64,000 bases of DNA. Origin: Chitinophagaceae bacterium (lineage in GTDB: Bacteria > Bacteroidota > Bacteroidia > Chitinophagales > Chitinophagaceae). Below, piece by piece: positions 11,386-41,514 of this stretch. Numbering within the stretch: position 1 is the first letter of the stretch; every line of letters begins with the position of its first letter. A program made the position numbers and the translations under genes. The notes below the pieces were generated by a model. It saw only the letters and a list, made by a program, of their open reading frames with translations, was not told the origin of the DNA and did not search any database. The stretch lies in NCBI GenBank assembly GCA_016787135.1, contig JAEUVK010000221.1, positions 1-64,000 on the forward strand, written 5' to 3'.

Positions 11386-12597
11386 ATGCAATTCAAAGAC
11401 ATCATAGGACAGGCCGATGTTAAGCGCAATCTGATCGAGTTGGTACAGCATAACCGGCTCAGTCATGCTTTGCTCTTTCTGGGCAAAGAAGGAAGCGGCG
11501 TATTGCCTATGGCATTATCCTTTGCGCAGTATGTAGTATGTGAAAAAGTGAGTGGTCAGTGGTCAATGGTCAATAAAGGACCTTCACTATTTGCAGACGA
11601 CCCCCCACAGGTAATAAGTAATCCGCAACCGGCAACTGACAGTTGCGGATCCTGCCCTGCCTGTACGAAATCACAGCAATTCGTTCATCCTGATATTCAT
11701 TTCAGCTACCCGGTTGTAACAAAAAAGCCTGGGACACCGCCGGTCAGTACTGATTATATTACTGAATGGAGAGAGTTCATCAAAGGTTACCCATATGGGA
11801 ATATATATGACTGGTTGCAGTTTATCGGTGCAGAAAATAAACAAGGAAATATCACAGCGAATGAATGCAATGATATCATCCGCAAGCTGAGTCTGAAAAG
11901 CTTTGAAAGCGAATACAAGGTTTTAATTCTCTGGATGCCGGAATACTTAGGTAATGAGGGGAATAAACTTTTAAAGCTTATAGAAGAACCGCCGCCGGAT
12001 ACATTATTCATACTGGTAGCAGAAAACGAATCATTAATTCTGCCAACAATCTTAAGCCGTTGCCAGCTGATCAAGATACCAGCGCTGGAAATAAAAGAAG
12101 TAGAAGAAGCCCTGATCAGCCGGAATAAAACTGTGCCGGAAACGGCAAGACAGGTAGCCAGTGTAAGTGAAGGTAATTACCGTGAGGCACTGCAAATGGT
12201 ACAACATGCCGATGAAGACTGGCAAAGTTTATTACGGGAGTGGTTGAATGCCATGCTGAAGACCGGCCCGATTGCACAAACAAGGTGGGTGGAAGAAATC
12301 AGTAAACATGGCAGGGAAAAGCAGAAACAGTTCCTTCGCTACTTTAATCACCTGCTGGAATTGGCTGTCAGGCTCCGGGTGATTGGTGGTGAGTCGAATA
12401 TTCCTGAGAAAGAAAGGGATTTTGCGGAAAGACTGAACAAGATAGCCGGAATAGAGCAGCAGCAGGCTATAATAGAAGAATTGGACAAGGCTGCCTATTA
12501 TATAGAAAGGAATGCTAATGCGAAGATCCTGTTCCATGCCCTCACGATTAAGTTATACCATATCATTCGGGACAAAATTGTATTTTTGGCGGATTGA
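11386..12597 (+). CDS. holB: DNA polymerase III delta-prime subunit (HolB-like)
   Basis: This 403-residue clamp-loader subunit of the replicative polymerase belongs to the AAA+ family. It starts FKDIIGQADVKRNLIELV and carries the zinc motif CGSCPACTK at about residues 86-94, and EEPPPDTLFILVAEN with the SRC motif (ILSRCQLIKIP) near 205-230. The P-loop is degenerate (GKEGSGVLPM), as is usual for delta-prime. Residues about 52-86 are an insertion made largely of two 7-base repeat arrays (11548-11575, 11611-11638), read in frame. Relatives normally pass quickly from FAQYVVCE to the zinc motif. A one-mismatch -7 box is at 11355-11362. Confidence 0.9.
   Translation: MQFKDIIGQADVKRNLIELVQHNRLSHALLFLGKEGSGVLPMALSFAQYVVCEKVSGQWSMVNKGPSLFADDPPQVISNPQPATDSCGSCPACTKSQQFVHPDIHFSYPVVTKKPGTPPVSTDYITEWREFIKGYPYGNIYDWLQFIGAENKQGNITANECNDIIRKLSLKSFESEYKVLILWMPEYLGNEGNKLLKLIEEPPPDTLFILVAENESLILPTILSRCQLIKIPALEIKEVEEALISRNKTVPETARQVASVSEGNYREALQMVQHADEDWQSLLREWLNAMLKTGPIAQTRWVEEISKHGREKQKQFLRYFNHLLELAVRLRVIGGESNIPEKERDFAERLNKIAGIEQQQAIIEELDKAAYYIERNANAKILFHALTIKLYHIIRDKIVFLAD
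11548..11575 (+). repeat. Heptamer array, 4 units, inside holB
   Basis: Four 7-base units run in perfect phase, for example GTCAGTG followed by GTCAATG. The unit is a relative of GGTGAGT used in mutL and at 39524. It is read as part of the delta-prime protein (SGQWSMVN). Confidence 0.8.
11611..11638 (+). repeat. Heptamer array, 4 units, inside holB (second)
   Basis: Four 7-base units run in phase, for example GCAACCG followed by GCAACTG. They start 63 bases (nine periods) after the first array. The words CAACCG and CTGACA recur at 41466-41514. Confidence 0.7.
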
Positions 12598-17256: not shown

Positions 17257-19098
17257 GTGCCCGATAAAATTCTTTTATTACCCGATAATATTGCCAACCA
17301 GATAGCAGCCGGCGAGGTCATTCAGCGACCGGCCAGTGCTGTAAAGGAGTTATTGGAGAATGCGGTGGATGCCGGTGCAACGGATATCAGACTCATTATA
17401 CAGGATGCCGGAAAATCACTGATACAGGTGATAGACAACGGCGGAGGCATGAGTGAGACCGATGCCCGGATGTGTTTTGAACGTCATGCTACTTCGAAGA
17501 TCAAAAATATAGAAGATCTTTTTCATATAAAGACGATGGGTTTCCGTGGTGAAGCGCTGGCTTCGATAGCCGCGGTGTCACAGGTGGAGTTAAAAACTAA
17601 AAGAGAAAGCGACGAAACCGGTGTTTATATTGAAGTAGAGAATAGTGTAGTAAAAAAACAGGAGCCTGTTGCAGCACCTACGGGCACCAGTATTGCCATG
17701 AAGAATTTATTCTTCAATGTTCCGGCGCGGAGAAATTTTTTGAAAAGCAATGCTGCCGAGATGCGGCACATCGTAGATGAATTTACAAGAGTAGCTTTAT
17801 CGTTTCCGCACATATTCTTTTCCCTTACTGCAAACGGGCAGCAATTGTTTCATCTCGAAGCTGGCAGCCTGAAGCAACGTATCGTTCAGTTATTAGGCAA
17901 TAACTACAATGCAAAATTAGTAACGGTGAGGGAAGAGACTGATTATATGAATATCTATGGCTTTGCGGGTAAACCGGATACAGCAAAGAAGACAAGGGGG
18001 GATCAATATTTTTTTGTCAATAACCGGTATATCAAAAGCCCTTACCTGAACCATGCGGTAATGAATGCCTACCAGGAAATGATCGCTTCCGATAGTTTTC
18101 CGATGTATGTATTGTTCATTGACCTGAACCCTGAACAGGTGGATGTGAATGTACATCCCACCAAGCAGGAGATCAAGTTCGAGGATGAGAAGATTGTGTA
18201 TGCCTTTGTACAGGCCGCGGTGAAACATGCACTGGCACAATTCAGCGTTACACCCACACTTGATTTTGATCTCGATGCATCCATCCAGCAATTGCCGGCA
18301 ATACAACAACCTTTCACCCAAGAAAAGCAAACGGCTGTAACCTCTACATCTATCTTCAAAGGATTTACACAGAAACACCAGGCTCATTTTATCGAATCTT
18401 CCCAGAAAACAGAGTTAAAGCACTGGAAGGATTTTTATGAGAGTAACGAACAAGGAACACGGAATAATGAACAGAAGAAGGAAGAAGATGAATCCAGGTT
18501 TATAACTCACCACTTACCACTTACCACTCACCCGGATACAGAATTCACTCAACTACTCAACACATACATTGTCGCTCCTTCAGTAAACGGCTTTGTCCTC
18601 ATTCACCAGCAATCGGCGCATGAAAGAGTATTGTATGAACAATTGAAAACAACAGGTCAGGGCAAACCGGTTGCTACACAGCGCAGCATGTTCCCGGTTA
18701 CATTAGAGCTGGCTCTTGCTGATGCCGTATTGCTTCATGAATTGATCAGTGACCTGCTGGAGCTGGGCTACATGATCGAACCATTCGGAAAAAATAGTTT
18801 TGTCATCCAGGGTACGCCTGCCGACCTGGAACAAGGTAATGAAAAGAATATCATAGATAATTTACTGGAGCAGTATAAGCATTTCAGCAGCGAAGTAAAG
18901 TTTTCCAAACGGGAAAAATTGGTTCGTTCGCTGGCCAAACAACAGGCTGTAAAAGCCGGAATGAGGTTGACAGAAAGAGAAATGAAGCAATTGGTAAATG
19001 ACCTTTTTAATTGTGAACAGCCCAACATCACACCGGAAGGTAATCCCACCTACCTCGAATTTAAAAAGGATCAGTTGGATAAAATGTTTGGCAGATAA
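17257..19098 (+). CDS. mutL: DNA mismatch repair protein MutL
   Basis: This 613-residue MutL starts at GTG. The N-terminal GHKL ATPase shows ELLENAVDAGA, DNGGGM, GFRGEAL and the ATP-lid segment, followed by the transducer domain to about residue 330. The C-terminal dimerisation domain begins near residue 440 (HQQSAHERVLYEQL) and ends in CEQPNITPEGNPTYLEF. The usual endonuclease metal motif DQHAxxExxxxE is altered (HQQS replaces DQHA), and CPHGRP is absent, so nicking activity is doubtful. The linker at about residues 398-426 contains two arrays of tandem 7-base units. The -7 box at 17230 supports the start. Confidence 0.96.
   Translation: MPDKILLLPDNIANQIAAGEVIQRPASAVKELLENAVDAGATDIRLIIQDAGKSLIQVIDNGGGMSETDARMCFERHATSKIKNIEDLFHIKTMGFRGEALASIAAVSQVELKTKRESDETGVYIEVENSVVKKQEPVAAPTGTSIAMKNLFFNVPARRNFLKSNAAEMRHIVDEFTRVALSFPHIFFSLTANGQQLFHLEAGSLKQRIVQLLGNNYNAKLVTVREETDYMNIYGFAGKPDTAKKTRGDQYFFVNNRYIKSPYLNHAVMNAYQEMIASDSFPMYVLFIDLNPEQVDVNVHPTKQEIKFEDEKIVYAFVQAAVKHALAQFSVTPTLDFDLDASIQQLPAIQQPFTQEKQTAVTSTSIFKGFTQKHQAHFIESSQKTELKHWKDFYESNEQGTRNNEQKKEEDESRFITHHLPLTTHPDTEFTQLLNTYIVAPSVNGFVLIHQQSAHERVLYEQLKTTGQGKPVATQRSMFPVTLELALADAVLLHELISDLLELGYMIEPFGKNSFVIQGTPADLEQGNEKNIIDNLLEQYKHFSSEVKFSKREKLVRSLAKQQAVKAGMRLTEREMKQLVNDLFNCEQPNITPEGNPTYLEFKKDQLDKMFGR
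18448..18475 (+). repeat. Heptamer array, 4 units, inside mutL linker
   Basis: Four 7-base units run in perfect phase, for example GAACAAG and GAACACG. They are translated in frame as part of the interdomain linker (NEQGTRNNEQ). Confidence 0.8.
18505..18532 (+). repeat. Heptamer array, 4 units, inside mutL linker (second)
   Basis: The units are ACTCACC, ACTTACC twice, then ACTCACC. The reverse complement is GGTGAGT/GGTAAGT, the same word found at 39524-39530 and 39559-39565 and close to that in holB. Confidence 0.9.
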
Positions 19099-20885: not shown

Positions 20886-22244
20886 CTAATATTTTTCCCG
20901 AAGCCCCTGCACAAACTTCTCTACGGCCCTTCTGACATCGGTGGCGGAGTTATTGTGATTATTGACAAGAATAGAGAAGATTAATAGTTTCTTCTTTTTA
21001 GTGTACAGGAATCCGCTGAGTGACACGACGCCGCTGAGGGTGCCGGTCTTGGCATAGATATACCCGCCTTCGGGTTTATAATAGCTACTTAATGTGCCTT
21101 CGCCGCCGGTAGGAAAGATGGTCTTTATCCGTTCCATCCCGAATTCATTCTTCATCCTGGTGAGGATGGAAACAAAATCCTGCGGGGTAAATAAATTGTA
21201 ACGGCTGAGCCCGGAGCCATCCGCCCAGCGGGGTTTTTGCGGCAGGTCTTTGAAGTCTGTTTTTAATAAACTGTCAATGATCTTCTCATCACTCATATAG
21301 CCCAGCAGTTCATTACTCACCATCAGTAAGCTTTGCTCCGCAAAAAAATTATCGCTACGGTGCATCATAGGTTTGAGGAGGGAGTCGGTGGGTTGGGAGT
21401 GGATACGCTTAAGATCATTTCTGATACTATGCCTAAAGCCCCGCATTTGAGCAGAAGACCCTATGCTGACTTTTTTTTTCAGAGTATCCTTTAATAGATC
21501 CAATGCTGATTGAATACCAGCTGTCACAAATGGGACAAGCTGTTCCTTTTTCTTTTCAGTTCCTTCGCTCAACAAAAAGGAATTTATTCCCACGGCTCTC
21601 TTAACATTGAAATTTTTATTTTTTTCATCTATGTTGAAATTCACTTCCCAGGTTATTTCCGGGATGGAATAAATAACGGGTTGTTCTTCTTCGTCTTCTT
21701 TTTCCTGTATCCATTTAATAACATTACCATAAACCGGTAAGGGGCTTCTTTCAGCCATATAATATTCATTATAATCATTCCAGGCCCATCCCGAACCTAA
21801 CGGTTCATCTTTCCAGTTATTATCGGCTATATAAATGCTTCTTGTTTCTTTCCTGAGGTGATCAATCAGTCGATGTATCTTAAAATCCGGATGCAGTAAT
21901 GTGGGATCGCCGGCAGGAACAGCAAGAATTGCCGTATCCTTTTCAAGAATCAAAGCTACGGTCAAACTATCCCCCAGGTACTTCATCGCAGCATAACAGG
22001 TCGGTATCTTGGTATTGCTGGCGGGTACAAAATATTTATCGCCCTGGTAATTGAACCAGTATTTGTTGGTAGCCGGTTCATAGATGCTGATACCGGTATG
22101 CGCCGTTTGCAGGGCTGGGGCAGACAATATGTTTTCTTTGGCAGAATGGGCTATTTGCTTTTGAACAGAACACGAGGAGAGAAAAATGATGAATGATGAA
22201 TTAAGAATGATGAACCTGATCAGGCTTTTCCGGTGACGGTACAT
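20886..22244 (-). CDS. D-alanyl-D-alanine carboxypeptidase/endopeptidase (PBP4, S13) lipoprotein
   Basis: This 452-residue peptidase S13 (DacB-like) protein trims peptidoglycan stem peptides. The active-site SxxK is SNTK (about residue 80), followed by SDN (near 300) and KTG in AKTGTLSGV (near 405). The lipobox is FLSSC, about residue 25. I start at ATG 22244 and not 22262. The upstream codons lie in a heptamer array, and a second array (22185-22212) encodes the hydrophobic core of the signal peptide. It probably acts in the periplasm, lipid-anchored. It follows the oxidoreductase gene closely on the same strand. Confidence 0.88.
   Translation of the reverse strand: MYRHRKSLIRFIILNSSFIIFLSSCSVQKQIAHSAKENILSAPALQTAHTGISIYEPATNKYWFNYQGDKYFVPASNTKIPTCYAAMKYLGDSLTVALILEKDTAILAVPAGDPTLLHPDFKIHRLIDHLRKETRSIYIADNNWKDEPLGSGWAWNDYNEYYMAERSPLPVYGNVIKWIQEKEDEEEQPVIYSIPEITWEVNFNIDEKNKNFNVKRAVGINSFLLSEGTEKKKEQLVPFVTAGIQSALDLLKDTLKKKVSIGSSAQMRGFRHSIRNDLKRIHSQPTDSLLKPMMHRSDNFFAEQSLLMVSNELLGYMSDEKIIDSLLKTDFKDLPQKPRWADGSGLSRYNLFTPQDFVSILTRMKNEFGMERIKTIFPTGGEGTLSSYYKPEGGYIYAKTGTLSGVVSLSGFLYTKKKKLLIFSILVNNHNNSATDVRRAVEKFVQGLREKY
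22185..22212 (+). repeat. Heptamer array, 4 units, in signal peptide of PBP4 gene
   Basis: The units are AATGATG twice, AATTAAG, then AATGATG. Together with 22249-22283 it forms an inverted pair around 36 bases. Read on the minus strand it encodes FIILNSSFII. Confidence 0.9.
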
Positions 22245-22248
22245 TTTT

Positions 22249-22283
22249 AACTCATCATTCATAACTCATCATTCTAAACTATA
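22249..22283 (+). repeat. Heptamer array, 5 units, inverted partner
   Basis: Units such as AACTCAT then CATTCAT alternate. The embedded word CATCATT is the complement of AATGATG in the partner array at 22185. It overlaps the stop codon of the oxidoreductase gene. Confidence 0.85.
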
Positions 22284-23328: not shown

Positions 23329-23417
23329 AGAAATAAGGAACTAAAAATAAGAAATGAGAAAGTTACAATATCCCCAACTTTCTCATTCCTTATTTCTCAT
23401 TTTATATTTTTTATTTA
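23329..23417. repeat. Inverted pair of heptamer arrays (no gene inside)
   Basis: Five units at 23329-23363 (for example AGAAATG then AGAAAGT) face six units at 23376-23417 (for example AACTTTC then TCATTCC). The inner 20 bases of the arms pair with one mismatch around 12 bases. It fills the gap between the oxidoreductase and the arginase-fold gene. The hairpin could also end transcription. Confidence 0.88.
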
Positions 23418-24551
23418 ACTCCTTTCCTGTGCCCTCAACCATCTCTCCGGTATTTCATTACTGCTGGCAAGCATGTAATCTTTATAACTGCAGGCAATAA
23501 AGCTCTTATTGGGCAGTTGCATCCACCATCTGCCCGTTTTTTTGCTTTGCAGGAACATCGTCTCTACTTCCGCAAATGCCATGTGGTATTCATTGAATGA
23601 ATCCCTTTCGTCTAATTTGGCTTCCCGCTTACCACGGCTGCGGCCGTCCAGTATGTACCAGATCATATGGCTGATCTGCTTGGCGGTCAGGTCGTCTTTA
23701 TCATGCTCGGGGTTGTAGCCATATATGCCGATCGTATTCACATTCGGACTCATCCCGGCGTATCGTAATAATGCACAGGCTTCTTCGCCGGTAAAACCAT
23801 TAGGTGAAACTGAACTGGCAGGTGCAAAGGCATTAGCGATGGCGGAAATGTCAAAACTTACCAGGTTGCTGTTGCGTATCACCGGTTCCATCTCATCAAT
23901 GCTTTCTTTGACATGGCCGACACGATAACAGTCAAAGCGGAGCTTGTCCATTGTTTCCAGCATCCGGGGATGTACATAATAGCTCTGGAACCCGATATGA
24001 TTGTAATGACGGATATAATTGGGCTCACCGGTCAGCATTTCCATCAGGAAATTCTCGTGATGGAACGGCGAATCAATATTCAGGTCAATCAGCGCATCAA
24101 TGCAGGTCGCTTCGATCGGCTTTTTATTTTCTGAATAGGCATAGTATTGAGAAAGCGTCAGGTCATGGCTGCCGCCAAGGATAATGACGGTTTTGCCATC
24201 GCCGATCAGTTCCTGTACCACTGTTTTCAGGGCAGCGTAAGTGTCGGTGTACAATGAACCGGTTCGGATATTGCCGATGTCGGCGATCTTAATGTCGGTA
24301 TGCCAATAGAACAAAGAGTATAGCTGGTGACGTATCACATCCGGCGCATTGCTCTCAATATGGACAACGCCGCTGCCACGCTGCTCACCGCAACCTACGA
24401 GTACGATCTGTACGTCATCAAGGTCAGGGAACTCATCTTCATATACGGCAATGCTCTTTCCGAACTGACCATCTTTGTACCCTTCATCCAGCGATATGCG
24501 GTGAACATTCAACGGGGACAAAAAATCGGAGATGTTGAGGTGGTCTGACAT
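23415..24551 (-). CDS. Arginase/agmatinase-fold protein with degenerate metal site
   Basis: This 378-residue protein has the ureohydrolase fold. The metal motifs are changed: GGSHDL (near 122) keeps the first His, but the expected DAHxD is DALID (near 151) and SxDxDxxDP is SFDISAIAN (near 231). It may therefore have lost or altered its metal-dependent hydrolysis. Databases often call such Bacteroidetes proteins formimidoylglutamase. I start at ATG 24551 (MSDHLNISDFL); the longer frame to 24602 reads a heptamer array. A -7-like TATCTTGC ends five bases upstream. The four-helix-bundle gene overlaps its first 68 bases. Confidence 0.8.
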   Translation of the reverse strand: MSDHLNISDFLSPLNVHRISLDEGYKDGQFGKSIAVYEDEFPDLDDVQIVLVGCGEQRGSGVVHIESNAPDVIRHQLYSLFYWHTDIKIADIGNIRTGSLYTDTYAALKTVVQELIGDGKTVIILGGSHDLTLSQYYAYSENKKPIEATCIDALIDLNIDSPFHHENFLMEMLTGEPNYIRHYNHIGFQSYYVHPRMLETMDKLRFDCYRVGHVKESIDEMEPVIRNSNLVSFDISAIANAFAPASSVSPNGFTGEEACALLRYAGMSPNVNTIGIYGYNPEHDKDDLTAKQISHMIWYILDGRSRGKREAKLDERDSFNEYHMAFAEVETMFLQSKKTGRWWMQLPNKSFIACSYKDYMLASSNEIPERWLRAQERS

Positions 24552-24957
24552 AATATGCAAGATAGTGGAAAATGGAAAGTGGAATATGGGGGTTGTGCTC
24601 ACTTATCAGATTGCCGATCATTTTACTGAGCATCCGGAATACAGATCCCGGAAAAGATTCCAGTTTTTCAATTTCGTTCTTTTTCAAATACTCCAGGGCC
24701 ATTGATAGTTCAATTTGGGTATCTACTTCAACCAATGAACTACGGGATATCTCATAAAAACGTTTCTTTTCAGGCTTTGAATGCCTGGCAGCGCCTTCAG
24801 CGAGATTACTGCAAACAGATATAGCCGCACGTCTCAACTGAGTTACGAGGACAAACTGTTCTTCTTTAGGAAAGGCTTTAGTAAGCCGATATACCTCTTC
24901 TACAAGATCAAGCGAAATTTTATAAACTTCCAGTTTTTTGTGTGCAAGTTGTAGCAT
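24484..24957 (-). CDS. Four-helix-bundle protein (23S rRNA IVS / S23 family)
   Basis: This 157-residue frame begins MLQLAHKKLEVYKISLDLVEEVYRL. Residues about 5-120 match the four-helix-bundle family first seen in 23S rRNA intervening sequences and related to the DGR accessory protein Avd. The hallmarks AAISVCSNLAEGAAR and FYEISRSSLVEVDTQIE are present. The family binds nucleic acid through a basic surface. The last 35 residues are abnormal: they translate the heptamer array at 24564 and then run out of frame into the arginase-fold gene, so the natural stop is missing. A -7-like TACCTTTT lies at 24972-24979 on the minus strand. Inverted heptamer arrays flank the gene, suggesting a mobile unit. 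Confidence 0.85.
   Translation of the reverse strand: MLQLAHKKLEVYKISLDLVEEVYRLTKAFPKEEQFVLVTQLRRAAISVCSNLAEGAARHSKPEKKRFYEISRSSLVEVDTQIELSMALEYLKKNEIEKLESFPGSVFRMLSKMIGNLISEHNPHIPLSIFHYLAYYVRPPQHLRFFVPVECSPHIAG
24564..24591 (+). repeat. Heptamer array, 4 units, left arm around four-helix gene
   Basis: The units are AGTGGAA, AATGGAA, AGTGGAA, then TATGGGG. Its outer edge shares one base with the -7-like box of the arginase-fold gene. The inner 15 bases match the complement of the right arm with one difference. Confidence 0.88.
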
Positions 24958-24990
24958 AGTAAAGGTTTTCCAAAAGGTAGGTCATTAGCC

Positions 24991-25025
24991 CCATTTTCCA
25001 CTCTCCTTTCTCCTCTTTCCAACCC
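24991..25025 (+). repeat. Heptamer array, 5 units, right arm around four-helix gene
   Basis: Units such as CCATTTT then CCACTCT all start with CC. It is the inverted partner of 24564-24591 and ends one base before the pheS -7 box. Confidence 0.82.
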
Positions 25026-25026
25026 T

Positions 25027-25034
25027 TATCTTTG
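25027..25034 (+). promoter_or_regulatory. -7 promoter box TATCTTTG of pheS
   Basis: An exact consensus match ends four bases before the pheS ATG, so the mRNA is probably leaderless or nearly so. The heptamer array directly upstream occupies the place of the -33 region. Confidence 0.55.
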
Positions 25035-25038
25035 CAAT

Positions 25039-26070
25039 ATGGAAGAACTGATTAGTAAGATAGAAAAGTATAAAACTGAGATCGCCGGTTCGGAGGCGTC
25101 TGATGCTAAAGGGGTGGAAGAGTTCCGCATCAAATGGCTGGGTACAAAAGGCATCATCAAAGAGGTAATGGGCGAGATGAAGAATGTGCCTGCTGATAAA
25201 AAGAAAGAGTTCGGGCAGGTGCTGAATGAGTTCAAACTTTTTACCGAGAGCAAATATGAAAGCCTGAAAGAAGCAACTGGTAATGGCCAGCTTTCTTCCG
25301 CCAGTGCTATTGACCTGTCGCTTCCCGGCGATCCAATGCCTTTGGGTTCCCGTCATCCCATCACCCTGATGAGGAACCGCATTGTTTCCATTTTTCAGCG
25401 CCTGGGTTTTGCAGTAGCCGAAGGCCCGGAGATAGAAGATGACTGGCATAATTTCGGCGCTCTCAACCTGCCGCCCCATCATCCTGCCCGCGACATGCAG
25501 GATACTTTTTATATACAGCAAAATCCCGATTGGGTATTGCGTACGCATACCAGCAGTGTGCAGATACGGGAAATGGATAAAGGCAAACTGCCGATCCGTA
25601 TGCTGATGCCCGGCCGTGTATATCGCAATGAAACGGTGAGTGCCAGAAGCCATTGTTTTTTTCACCAGGTAGAGGGCTTGTATATAGACGAGAATGTTTC
25701 TTTCGCCGACCTGAAGCAAACGTTATACTTTTTTGTAAAAGAAATGTACGGAAAGGATGTCAAGGTCCGTTTCCGGCCTTCTTATTTCCCTTTTACCGAG
25801 CCCAGCGCCGAGATGGACGTTACTTGCTTTATCTGCGGTGGCACGGGTTGTAATATCTGCAAAAAAACCGGCTGGGTAGAGATACTCGGTTGCGGTATGG
25901 TACACCCCAACGTATTATCCAACTGCAATATTGACCCCAATAAATACACCGGTTTTGCCTTTGGAATGGGCATCGAACGACCTGCCATGCTGAAATACGG
26001 TGTCAACGATCTGCGCCTGTTCAGCGAGAATGATGTACGGTTCTTGAGACAGTTTACGAGTGCGATATAG
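25039..26070 (+). CDS. pheS: Phenylalanyl-tRNA synthetase alpha subunit
   Basis: This 343-residue class II aminoacyl-tRNA synthetase subunit charges tRNA-Phe as an alpha2beta2 enzyme. The N-terminal coiled coil spans about 1-85. Motif 1 lies in HPITLMRNRIVSIFQRLGF, motif 2 in VYRNETVSARSHCFFHQVEGLYID, and motif 3 in GFAFGMGIERPAMLKYG near 313-329. A CxxCxGTGCxxC insertion near 262-275 is a zinc-ribbon-like feature seen in this phylum. pheT is not adjacent. The -7 box is four bases from the start codon and follows a heptamer array. Confidence 0.97.
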   Translation: MEELISKIEKYKTEIAGSEASDAKGVEEFRIKWLGTKGIIKEVMGEMKNVPADKKKEFGQVLNEFKLFTESKYESLKEATGNGQLSSASAIDLSLPGDPMPLGSRHPITLMRNRIVSIFQRLGFAVAEGPEIEDDWHNFGALNLPPHHPARDMQDTFYIQQNPDWVLRTHTSSVQIREMDKGKLPIRMLMPGRVYRNETVSARSHCFFHQVEGLYIDENVSFADLKQTLYFFVKEMYGKDVKVRFRPSYFPFTEPSAEMDVTCFICGGTGCNICKKTGWVEILGCGMVHPNVLSNCNIDPNKYTGFAFGMGIERPAMLKYGVNDLRLFSENDVRFLRQFTSAI

Positions 26071-41417: not shown

Positions 41418-41514
41418 GTCGTCAGTTGTCATGTGTGAGCTGTCACAATAAAATAAATAGCCCATCTGACACGTAACAACAATCACCTGGCAACCGACAC
41501 CTGACAACTGTGGT
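41417..41514. repeat. Inverted pair of heptamer arrays between CPBP and dus genes
   Basis: The left array 41417-41451 (AGTCGTC, AGTTGTC and similar) faces the right array 41466-41514 of seven units (CTGACAC, CTGGCAA, CTGACAA and similar) across 14 bases. The words are complementary (TTGTCAG against CTGACAA). The GTG start of the dus gene lies in the last unit. Confidence 0.85.

What the first reader, a model, noticed from the sequence alone, without database searches (positions are those of the whole stretch)
24564..25025. Four-helix-bundle gene enclosed by inverted heptamer arrays: candidate mobile unit
The left array (AGTGGAA-type) and right array (complementary CC-starting units) match in inverted orientation, with the inner 15 bases differing at one position. 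Between them lies a single gene of the 23S-IVS/S23 four-helix-bundle family, which is related to the DGR accessory protein Avd and occurs as scattered copies in Bacteroidota. The unit sits exactly between two divergent genes (arginase-fold and pheS). Gene-free inverted array pairs elsewhere (23329, 22185, 41417) look like internal deletion forms. Inference: the four-helix protein and the arrays form one element, perhaps mobilised in trans.
Basis: partly seen in the sequence, partly recalled or inferred. Interest (0 to 1): 0.78.

Follow-up and report, generated by a model that had tools for sequence, protein, structure and literature searches.

The report
Heptamer-ended mobile elements carrying S23 genes
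A small gene of unknown function (the S23, or "four-helix bundle", family) lies between two mirror-image arrays of 7-base repeats, and comparison across hundreds of genomes shows that gene plus arrays form one compact mobile DNA element with many gene-free relatives, a kind for which I found no published description and whose mobility enzyme is unknown.

Summary
The window gene (24957-24602, minus strand) belongs to PF05635. All five copies in this genome and most of 66 copies in relatives are enclosed by inverted arrays of 6-9-base, mostly 7-base, units; 54 of 66 exceed the 99th percentile of control intervals. The arrays differ from copy to copy but match within a copy. In genome G011 two copies at unrelated sites are 80% identical over ~450 bp, with sharp ends exactly at the outer array ends, plus a family of 84-87 bp gene-free hairpins with the same arms; a sister species lacking this gene has no arm matches. 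A clean insertion is seen against empty sites in three same-genus genomes. Array sequence tracks protein subtype (Mantel r 0.32, 0/2000), and gene-free arrays are rare where the gene is absent. Best reading: a mobile element whose ends are arrays recognised by its own four-helix protein; gene-free hairpins are its non-autonomous relatives. No transposase or reverse transcriptase is consistently present. The chemistry of movement is unknown, and an RNA-regulator reading is not excluded.

The parts
24564..24592 (+). left terminal array (inward-reading G/A-rich heptamers AGTGGAA AATGGAA AGTGGAA TATGGGG)
   Evidence: period and pairing statistics
24602..24957 (-). PF05635/TIGR02436 four-helix (S23/IVP) gene; formal ORF continues to 24484 because of a 1-base 3' frameshift relative to the G005 orthologue
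   Evidence: predicted fold matches 2GSC (TM 0.94) and Avd 4DWL (TM 0.77)
24989..25025 (-). right terminal array, inverted relative to the left one (CCCCATTTTCCACTCTCCTTTCTCCTCTTTCC)
24564..25025 (-). the whole element (arm, gene, arm), about 460 bp
   Evidence: size and ends agree with the sharp-ended 447-450 bp copies in G011; conserved at this site in G005, absent from this junction in 14 other Chitinophagaceae genera
23415..24551 (-). flanking arginase-fold gene (PF00491), co-directional with the element's gene
25039..26070 (+). flanking pheS, divergent
   Evidence: identity by reading; used as the marker for the junction
22185..22274 (.). gene-free inverted array pair (AATGATGAATGATGAATTAAGAATGATGA / TCATCATTCATAACTCATCATTC)
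23345..23395 (.). gene-free inverted array pair
41420..41510 (.). gene-free inverted pair (GTCAGTTGTCATGTG / GACACCTGACAACTG)
   Evidence: by reading

Best explanation
The feature is a compact mobile element of about 450 bp. Its ends are two inverted arrays of about 26-35 bp made of 7-base (sometimes 8- or 9-base) units; its only gene encodes the S23/IVP four-helix protein. Shown here: the arm-gene-arm unit exists as sharp-ended copies at unrelated places, is polymorphic at orthologous junctions, and has gene-free hairpin relatives with the same arms. Also shown: the array sequence depends on the protein subtype, and arrays of the type tested are rare in genomes without the gene. Inferred: the protein (a pentamer in solved homologues) binds its cognate inward-pointing arrays at both ends and brings about, alone or with a host enzyme, movement of the unit and of gene-free hairpins in trans. 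Insertion is mainly into tight slots between a stop codon and the next start codon, usually in the operon's orientation, without a visible target duplication. The strand-transfer chemistry is unknown.
For: Copy-specific inverted flanks in 54 of 66 copies. Period 7. Two G011 copies 80% identical over ~450 bp with ends exactly at the outer arm ends and unrelated flanks. About 35 further short matches in G011 restricted almost entirely to the two arms (the weaker ones only E 0.01-1), several of them opposed pairs; seven examined in full are 84-87 bp hairpins with a shared loop; the sister species G127 has no arm matches. Clean insertion at a stop/start overlap in G005 with three empty same-genus sites. 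Presence/absence at seven same-genus junctions. Protein subtype predicts array sequence (Mantel r 0.32, 0 of 2000; >60% identical proteins, cosine 0.46 against about 0.22 below 40%). AGTGG arrays: 68/114 gene-bearing and 7/35 gene-less genomes, 27 against 0 genomes with 8 or more, Fisher p 4e-5, and the count follows the presence of a window-type protein (Spearman 0.51; partial 0.36 given gene number). Of 49 long-loop inverted arrays, 43 enclose this gene. dN/dS 0.06-0.24 in eight pairs (one with saturated dS), 0.064 between the two G011 copies.
Against: No recognisable nuclease or recombinase. No target-site duplication seen. No transposition event has been observed. Some copies have stayed at one site through strong synonymous divergence while under purifying selection, which suggests a host-level or regulatory role beyond simple selfishness. 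Gene-free arrays far outnumber genes, and many are single-armed. Within the window's own genome the window element has only weak arm relatives. Genome counts are not corrected for phylogeny.
Confidence: 0.64

Rival explanations
1. RNA regulator: the S23 protein is an RNA-binding ring (in the manner of TRAP, from my own knowledge) that recognises tandem heptamers in mRNA. Arrays near start and stop codons are its regulatory sites, and the arrays around its own gene give autoregulation or an excisable stem as in 23S rRNA intervening sequences.
For: About 88% of copies are co-directional with the flanking genes and sit a median of 2-4 bp from stop and start codons. The element RNA pairs its ends, z -3.7. 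Long-resident copies are under purifying selection. A regulatory role was proposed for TAACTGA heptamers upstream of start codons in other bacteria (PMC4679880).
Against: Sharp-ended dispersed copies and clean insertions. A family of hairpins in one genome absent from its sister. Arrays inside coding sequence. Arrays at one junction replaced by unrelated ones in close relatives. The regulator and mobile readings are not mutually exclusive.
Confidence: 0.15
2. Passenger: hairpin arrays are made and moved by an unidentified host system or by replication slippage and template switching; the S23 gene merely occupies some hairpins.
For: Gene-free arrays outnumber genes. The protein has no known catalytic domain. 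Period-8 and -9 hairpins without the gene occupy some of the same junctions.
Against: Arrays are rare or absent where the gene is absent. Array sequence follows protein subtype. Almost no other gene is enclosed (43 of 49 long-loop arrays hold this gene). No common candidate mover: several IVP-rich genomes lack a convincing Y1 transposase and several lack RVT_1.
Confidence: 0.17
3. Ordinary promoter or terminator hairpins, or a chance repeat beside an ordinary gene.
For: Arrays lie beside promoter-like -7 motifs (TATCTTTG of pheS at 25027-25034, by reading).
Against: Statistics; sharp-ended copies; the same arrangement in many phyla.
Confidence: 0.02

Closest known systems
23S rRNA intervening sequences (IVS) encoding S23p (Coxiella, Leptospira; PMC4990558)
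   Same: Same protein family, single ORF, terminal inverted repeats (28 bp in Coxiella), 428 nt long; called a selfish element and suspected mobile.
   Different: Inserted in intergenic slots rather than in rRNA; ends are short-period tandem arrays with copy-specific sequence; many dispersed copies and gene-free derivatives.
REPs/REPtrons with RAYT transposases, and MITEs (PMC3733652)
   Same: Short palindromic dispersed elements, some inside genes, with a dedicated protein gene flanked by the same repeats; non-autonomous copies outnumber the gene.
   Different: No Y1/HUH transposase in the element; arms are heptamer arrays whose sequence varies with protein subtype.
Rickettsial palindromic elements (mentioned in PMC3733652)
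   Same: Palindromic repeats that can lie in frame inside coding genes; mover unknown.
   Different: Here the repeats are tied to a specific protein family.
Avd of diversity-generating retroelements (4DWL, 8UB7)
   Same: Same four-helix fold (TM 0.77-0.84, Z 15).
   Different: About 8-9% identity; below the curated Avd cut-off; no RT found in many copy-rich genomes.
TAACTGA heptamer direct repeats of Beggiatoaceae, Cyanobacteria and Bacteroidetes (PMC4679880)
   Same: Seven-base tandem repeats in intergenic regions near start codons.
   Different: Direct repeats of one fixed heptamer, not inverted around a gene.

Membership tests
PF05635 / TIGR02436 S23 (IVP) protein family | Match above the curated cut-off | tested here: met
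   117.5 bits against 33.8; 106 against 24
PF05635 / TIGR02436 S23 (IVP) protein family | Four-helix bundle fold | tested here: met
   pLDDT 92.7, TM 0.94 to 2GSC, Z 20.9
23S rRNA intervening sequence | Lies inside a 23S rRNA gene | tested here: not met
   Lies between pheS and an arginase-fold gene
Diversity-generating retroelement (Avd) | Avd above its equivalog cut-off | tested here: not met
   26 bits against 80 for NF033474; 22.2 against 40 for bAvd
Diversity-generating retroelement (Avd) | A reverse transcriptase in the system | tested here: not met
   IVP-rich genomes G002, G017, G047, G049, G050, G063, G075, G010 and G055 have no RVT_1 match; G000 itself was not searched
REP/RAYT (REPtron) | Y1 (HUH) tyrosine transposase | tested here: not met
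   Not in the element; genomes with many copies lack a convincing PF01797 match: none in G047 and G075, only weak ones (E 1e-7 to 1e-8) in G017 and G049
TIR-type mobile element with MITE derivatives | Terminal inverted repeats bounding sharp-ended dispersed copies | tested here: met
   G011 copies L368 and L370
TIR-type mobile element with MITE derivatives | Gene-free copies sharing the same ends | tested here: met
   84-87 bp hairpins in G011
TIR-type mobile element with MITE derivatives | Target-site duplication | tested here: inconclusive
   None visible at the L044, L376 and G011 sites, but flanks are diverged
TIR-type mobile element with MITE derivatives | Transposase encoded in the element | tested here: inconclusive
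   Only the S23 gene is present; no known catalytic domain, but residues Q40, R43, S47, N51, E54 and E77 are 88-100% conserved in 98 copies
TIR-type mobile element with MITE derivatives | Observed transposition | not testable with these tools
   Needs a mobility assay

The most novel reading that the evidence does not exclude
The S23 four-helix protein is itself the recombinase or the essential sequence-specific mobility factor of a new class of minimal mobile elements found across bacterial phyla. Its terminal recognition sites are element-specific tandem heptamers, and 23S rRNA intervening sequences are a branch of this class.
Probability: 0.33. Interest if true: 0.93.

Novelty: new variant of a known kind. 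Interest (0 to 1): 0.84.

Why it matters
The S23 family has had solved structures for about 20 years and no known function. Here it acquires a testable one: a protein whose subtype predicts the sequence of the DNA arrays around its gene, tied to movement of very small elements. It would explain a large class of unexplained heptamer hairpins in Bacteroidota genomes, connect them to 23S rRNA intervening sequences and to Avd, and possibly reveal a new mobility enzyme.

Tried and rejected
Chance or promoter-like repeats: rejected by random-interval, swapped-flank and shuffle controls. Mobilisation by RAYT-type transposases: not consistent across genomes. Dependence on a reverse transcriptase: not consistent in the 16 genomes searched. 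First inverted-repeat screen with a strict periodicity filter classified most arms as non-periodic because units vary; replaced by paired alignment and a lag spectrum. The search for related loci with a mixed alignment failed for lack of conserved stretches; repeated with the window protein. A clean empty site for the window element within its own genus was not obtained: the junction was compared only with other genera, and in G005 it is filled. A mechanical scan counted six long-loop arrays without the gene; at least some are mis-pairings: L094 is a gene-free hairpin inside hemC, L081 spans about 1.4 kb, and one, L129, encloses a small unrelated ORF. Literature searches found no description, but subscription papers and preprints are not held.

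Full report
CHECK OF THE OBSERVATION. The arrays at 24564-24592 and 24989-25025 are real, inverted, and enclose a PF05635/TIGR02436 gene. The gene reads with the arginase-fold gene and against pheS. The window copy carries a one-base 3' frameshift relative to the G005 orthologue, so its formal ORF runs through the array.

IS IT MORE THAN CHANCE? This genome (G000) has five PF05635 genes, and reading their flanks shows inverted arrays around all five, each with its own sequence. For 66 copies (these five and 61 in relatives) the up-flank was aligned to the reverse complement of the down-flank. Median score was 17.2, against 8.5 for flanks swapped between copies and 8.0 for random intervals of the same loci; 54 of 66 exceed the 99th percentile of controls. 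Missed cases include copies whose arrays are visible by eye (L044, L004, L005). Over 118 arms, identity at lags 7, 14 and 21 is 0.46, 0.43 and 0.39 against 0.285. By copy the best period is 7 in 77, 8 in 16, 9 in 3 and 6 in 2. Inward-reading arms are poor in C (9%), with G exceeding C in 90 of 98. The same layout appears in many of 70 named loci from Bacteroidota, Alphaproteobacteria, Verrucomicrobiota, Planctomycetes and others; several of those loci, including some from Omnitrophota and Nitrospiria, show no clear arms.

IT MOVES AS A UNIT. In G011, two copies at positions 3.61 and 4.95 Mb are 80% identical over ~450 bp; similarity starts and stops exactly at the outer ends of the arms, and the flanks are unrelated. 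A search with one copy finds about 35 further short matches in G011 confined almost entirely to the arms; the strongest are at E 1e-6 to 0.007 and the weaker ones at E 0.01 to 1. Several form opposed pairs. Seven examined in full are 84-87 bp hairpins sharing a conserved loop, that is, the element minus roughly the ORF. The sister species G127, which has eight other PF05635 genes, has no arm matches. In G005 an element sits in a junction where G000, G003 and G006 have directly overlapping genes (ATGA); the insertion is clean and even supplies the upstream stop codon. At a gene-free G011 copy the sister species again has the overlap without the insertion. The window junction is empty in 14 other genera that keep pheS beside the arginase-fold gene; some of those hold unrelated gene-free arrays there. 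At one junction, G000 has the gene and G005 a gene-free hairpin of the same heptamers. At two others, relatives have a different protein and different arrays in the same slot.

PROTEIN AND ARRAY BELONG TOGETHER. Across 98 copies protein identity and array composition correlate (Mantel r 0.32, 0 of 2000 permutations; mean cosine 0.46 above 60% identity against about 0.22 below 40%). Close relatives of the window protein have mostly ARTRGNN-type arrays, with exceptions such as L185. Some of these pairs are orthologous sites, so vertical descent contributes to the correlation. Over 149 Chitinophagaceae genomes the AGTGG-type array occurs in 68 of 114 with PF05635 genes (1494 hits) and 7 of 35 without (15 hits, at most 6); among gene-bearing genomes the count follows the best window-type protein (Spearman 0.51; partial 0.36 given gene number). 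In sampled sequence, lag-7 arrays are 4.6-9.4 per 100 kb in three gene-bearing samples and zero in 320 kb from four gene-less genomes. These counts are not corrected for phylogeny. Of 49 long-loop inverted arrays, 43 enclose this gene; most of those come from loci that were fetched because they hold the gene, so the unbiased part is the window and the G000 and G011 samples (5 with the gene, 1 without).

WHERE IT INSERTS. The outer arm ends lie a median of 2 bp from the upstream stop codon and 4 bp from the downstream start codon, and the gene is co-directional with its neighbours in about 88%. Gene-free copies can also lie inside coding sequence, for example in hemC. No target duplication was seen.

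HOW IT LIKELY WORKS. The predicted fold is that of Xcc0516 (2GSC) and BT_0352 (2RLD), and beyond them Avd; the pentameric state of Xcc0516 is from PMC4990558. Residues Q40, S47, N51, E54 and E77 are 97-100% conserved and R43 and G55 88%. I infer that the oligomer binds cognate inward-pointing arrays at both ends. Whether it cuts DNA itself or recruits a host enzyme is open. A Y1 transposase is absent or only weakly matched, and RVT_1 is absent, in several copy-rich genomes. Purifying selection (dN/dS 0.06-0.24 in eight pairs, one with saturated dS) shows that the protein matters, also in copies long resident at one site, which is the strongest reason to keep a regulatory role in mind.

COMPARISON WITH THE KNOWN. 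The nearest relatives are 23S rRNA intervening sequences with S23p (PMC4990558), whose mobility was suspected but not shown; CPR rRNA insertions also encode this protein (PMC11270868). REP/RAYT and MITE systems work alike in anatomy (PMC3733652) but have a known transposase. No paper in the library searched describes PF05635 elements with heptamer ends.

Noticed in passing
L041 site family: L360, L343, L364, L362: One intergenic junction carries five different arrays in five same-genus genomes, including period-9 GTCAnnnnn arrays without a gene: apparently a hot slot.
   Followed up: partly
L355, L349, L354: Gene-free hairpins of a CGCAAAG type (period about 8) occupy junctions that hold S23 elements in relatives; their protein partner, if any, is unknown.
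   Followed up: no
L094 5671-5790: A gene-free heptamer hairpin lies in frame inside hemC of G009 (same contig coordinates as Foetidibacter luteolus), apparently adding a peptide to an essential enzyme.
   Followed up: partly
window 18444-18538: Two heptamer arrays lie inside the MutL-like ORF (17257-19098), perhaps in the inter-domain linker.
   Followed up: no
window 11543-11639: Further AGTGGTC-type array with a different array about 30 bp downstream.
   Followed up: no
L129 12637-13068: Inverted arrays enclose a small non-S23 ORF, the one possible other cargo seen.
   Followed up: partly
L061 (G001:C175): Two S23 elements lie about 2 kb apart on the same strand, with different arrays.
   Followed up: no
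L258, L262: Single-arm AGTGG arrays appear to lie inside coding sequence (L258 looks like tsaB), by reading.
   Followed up: no
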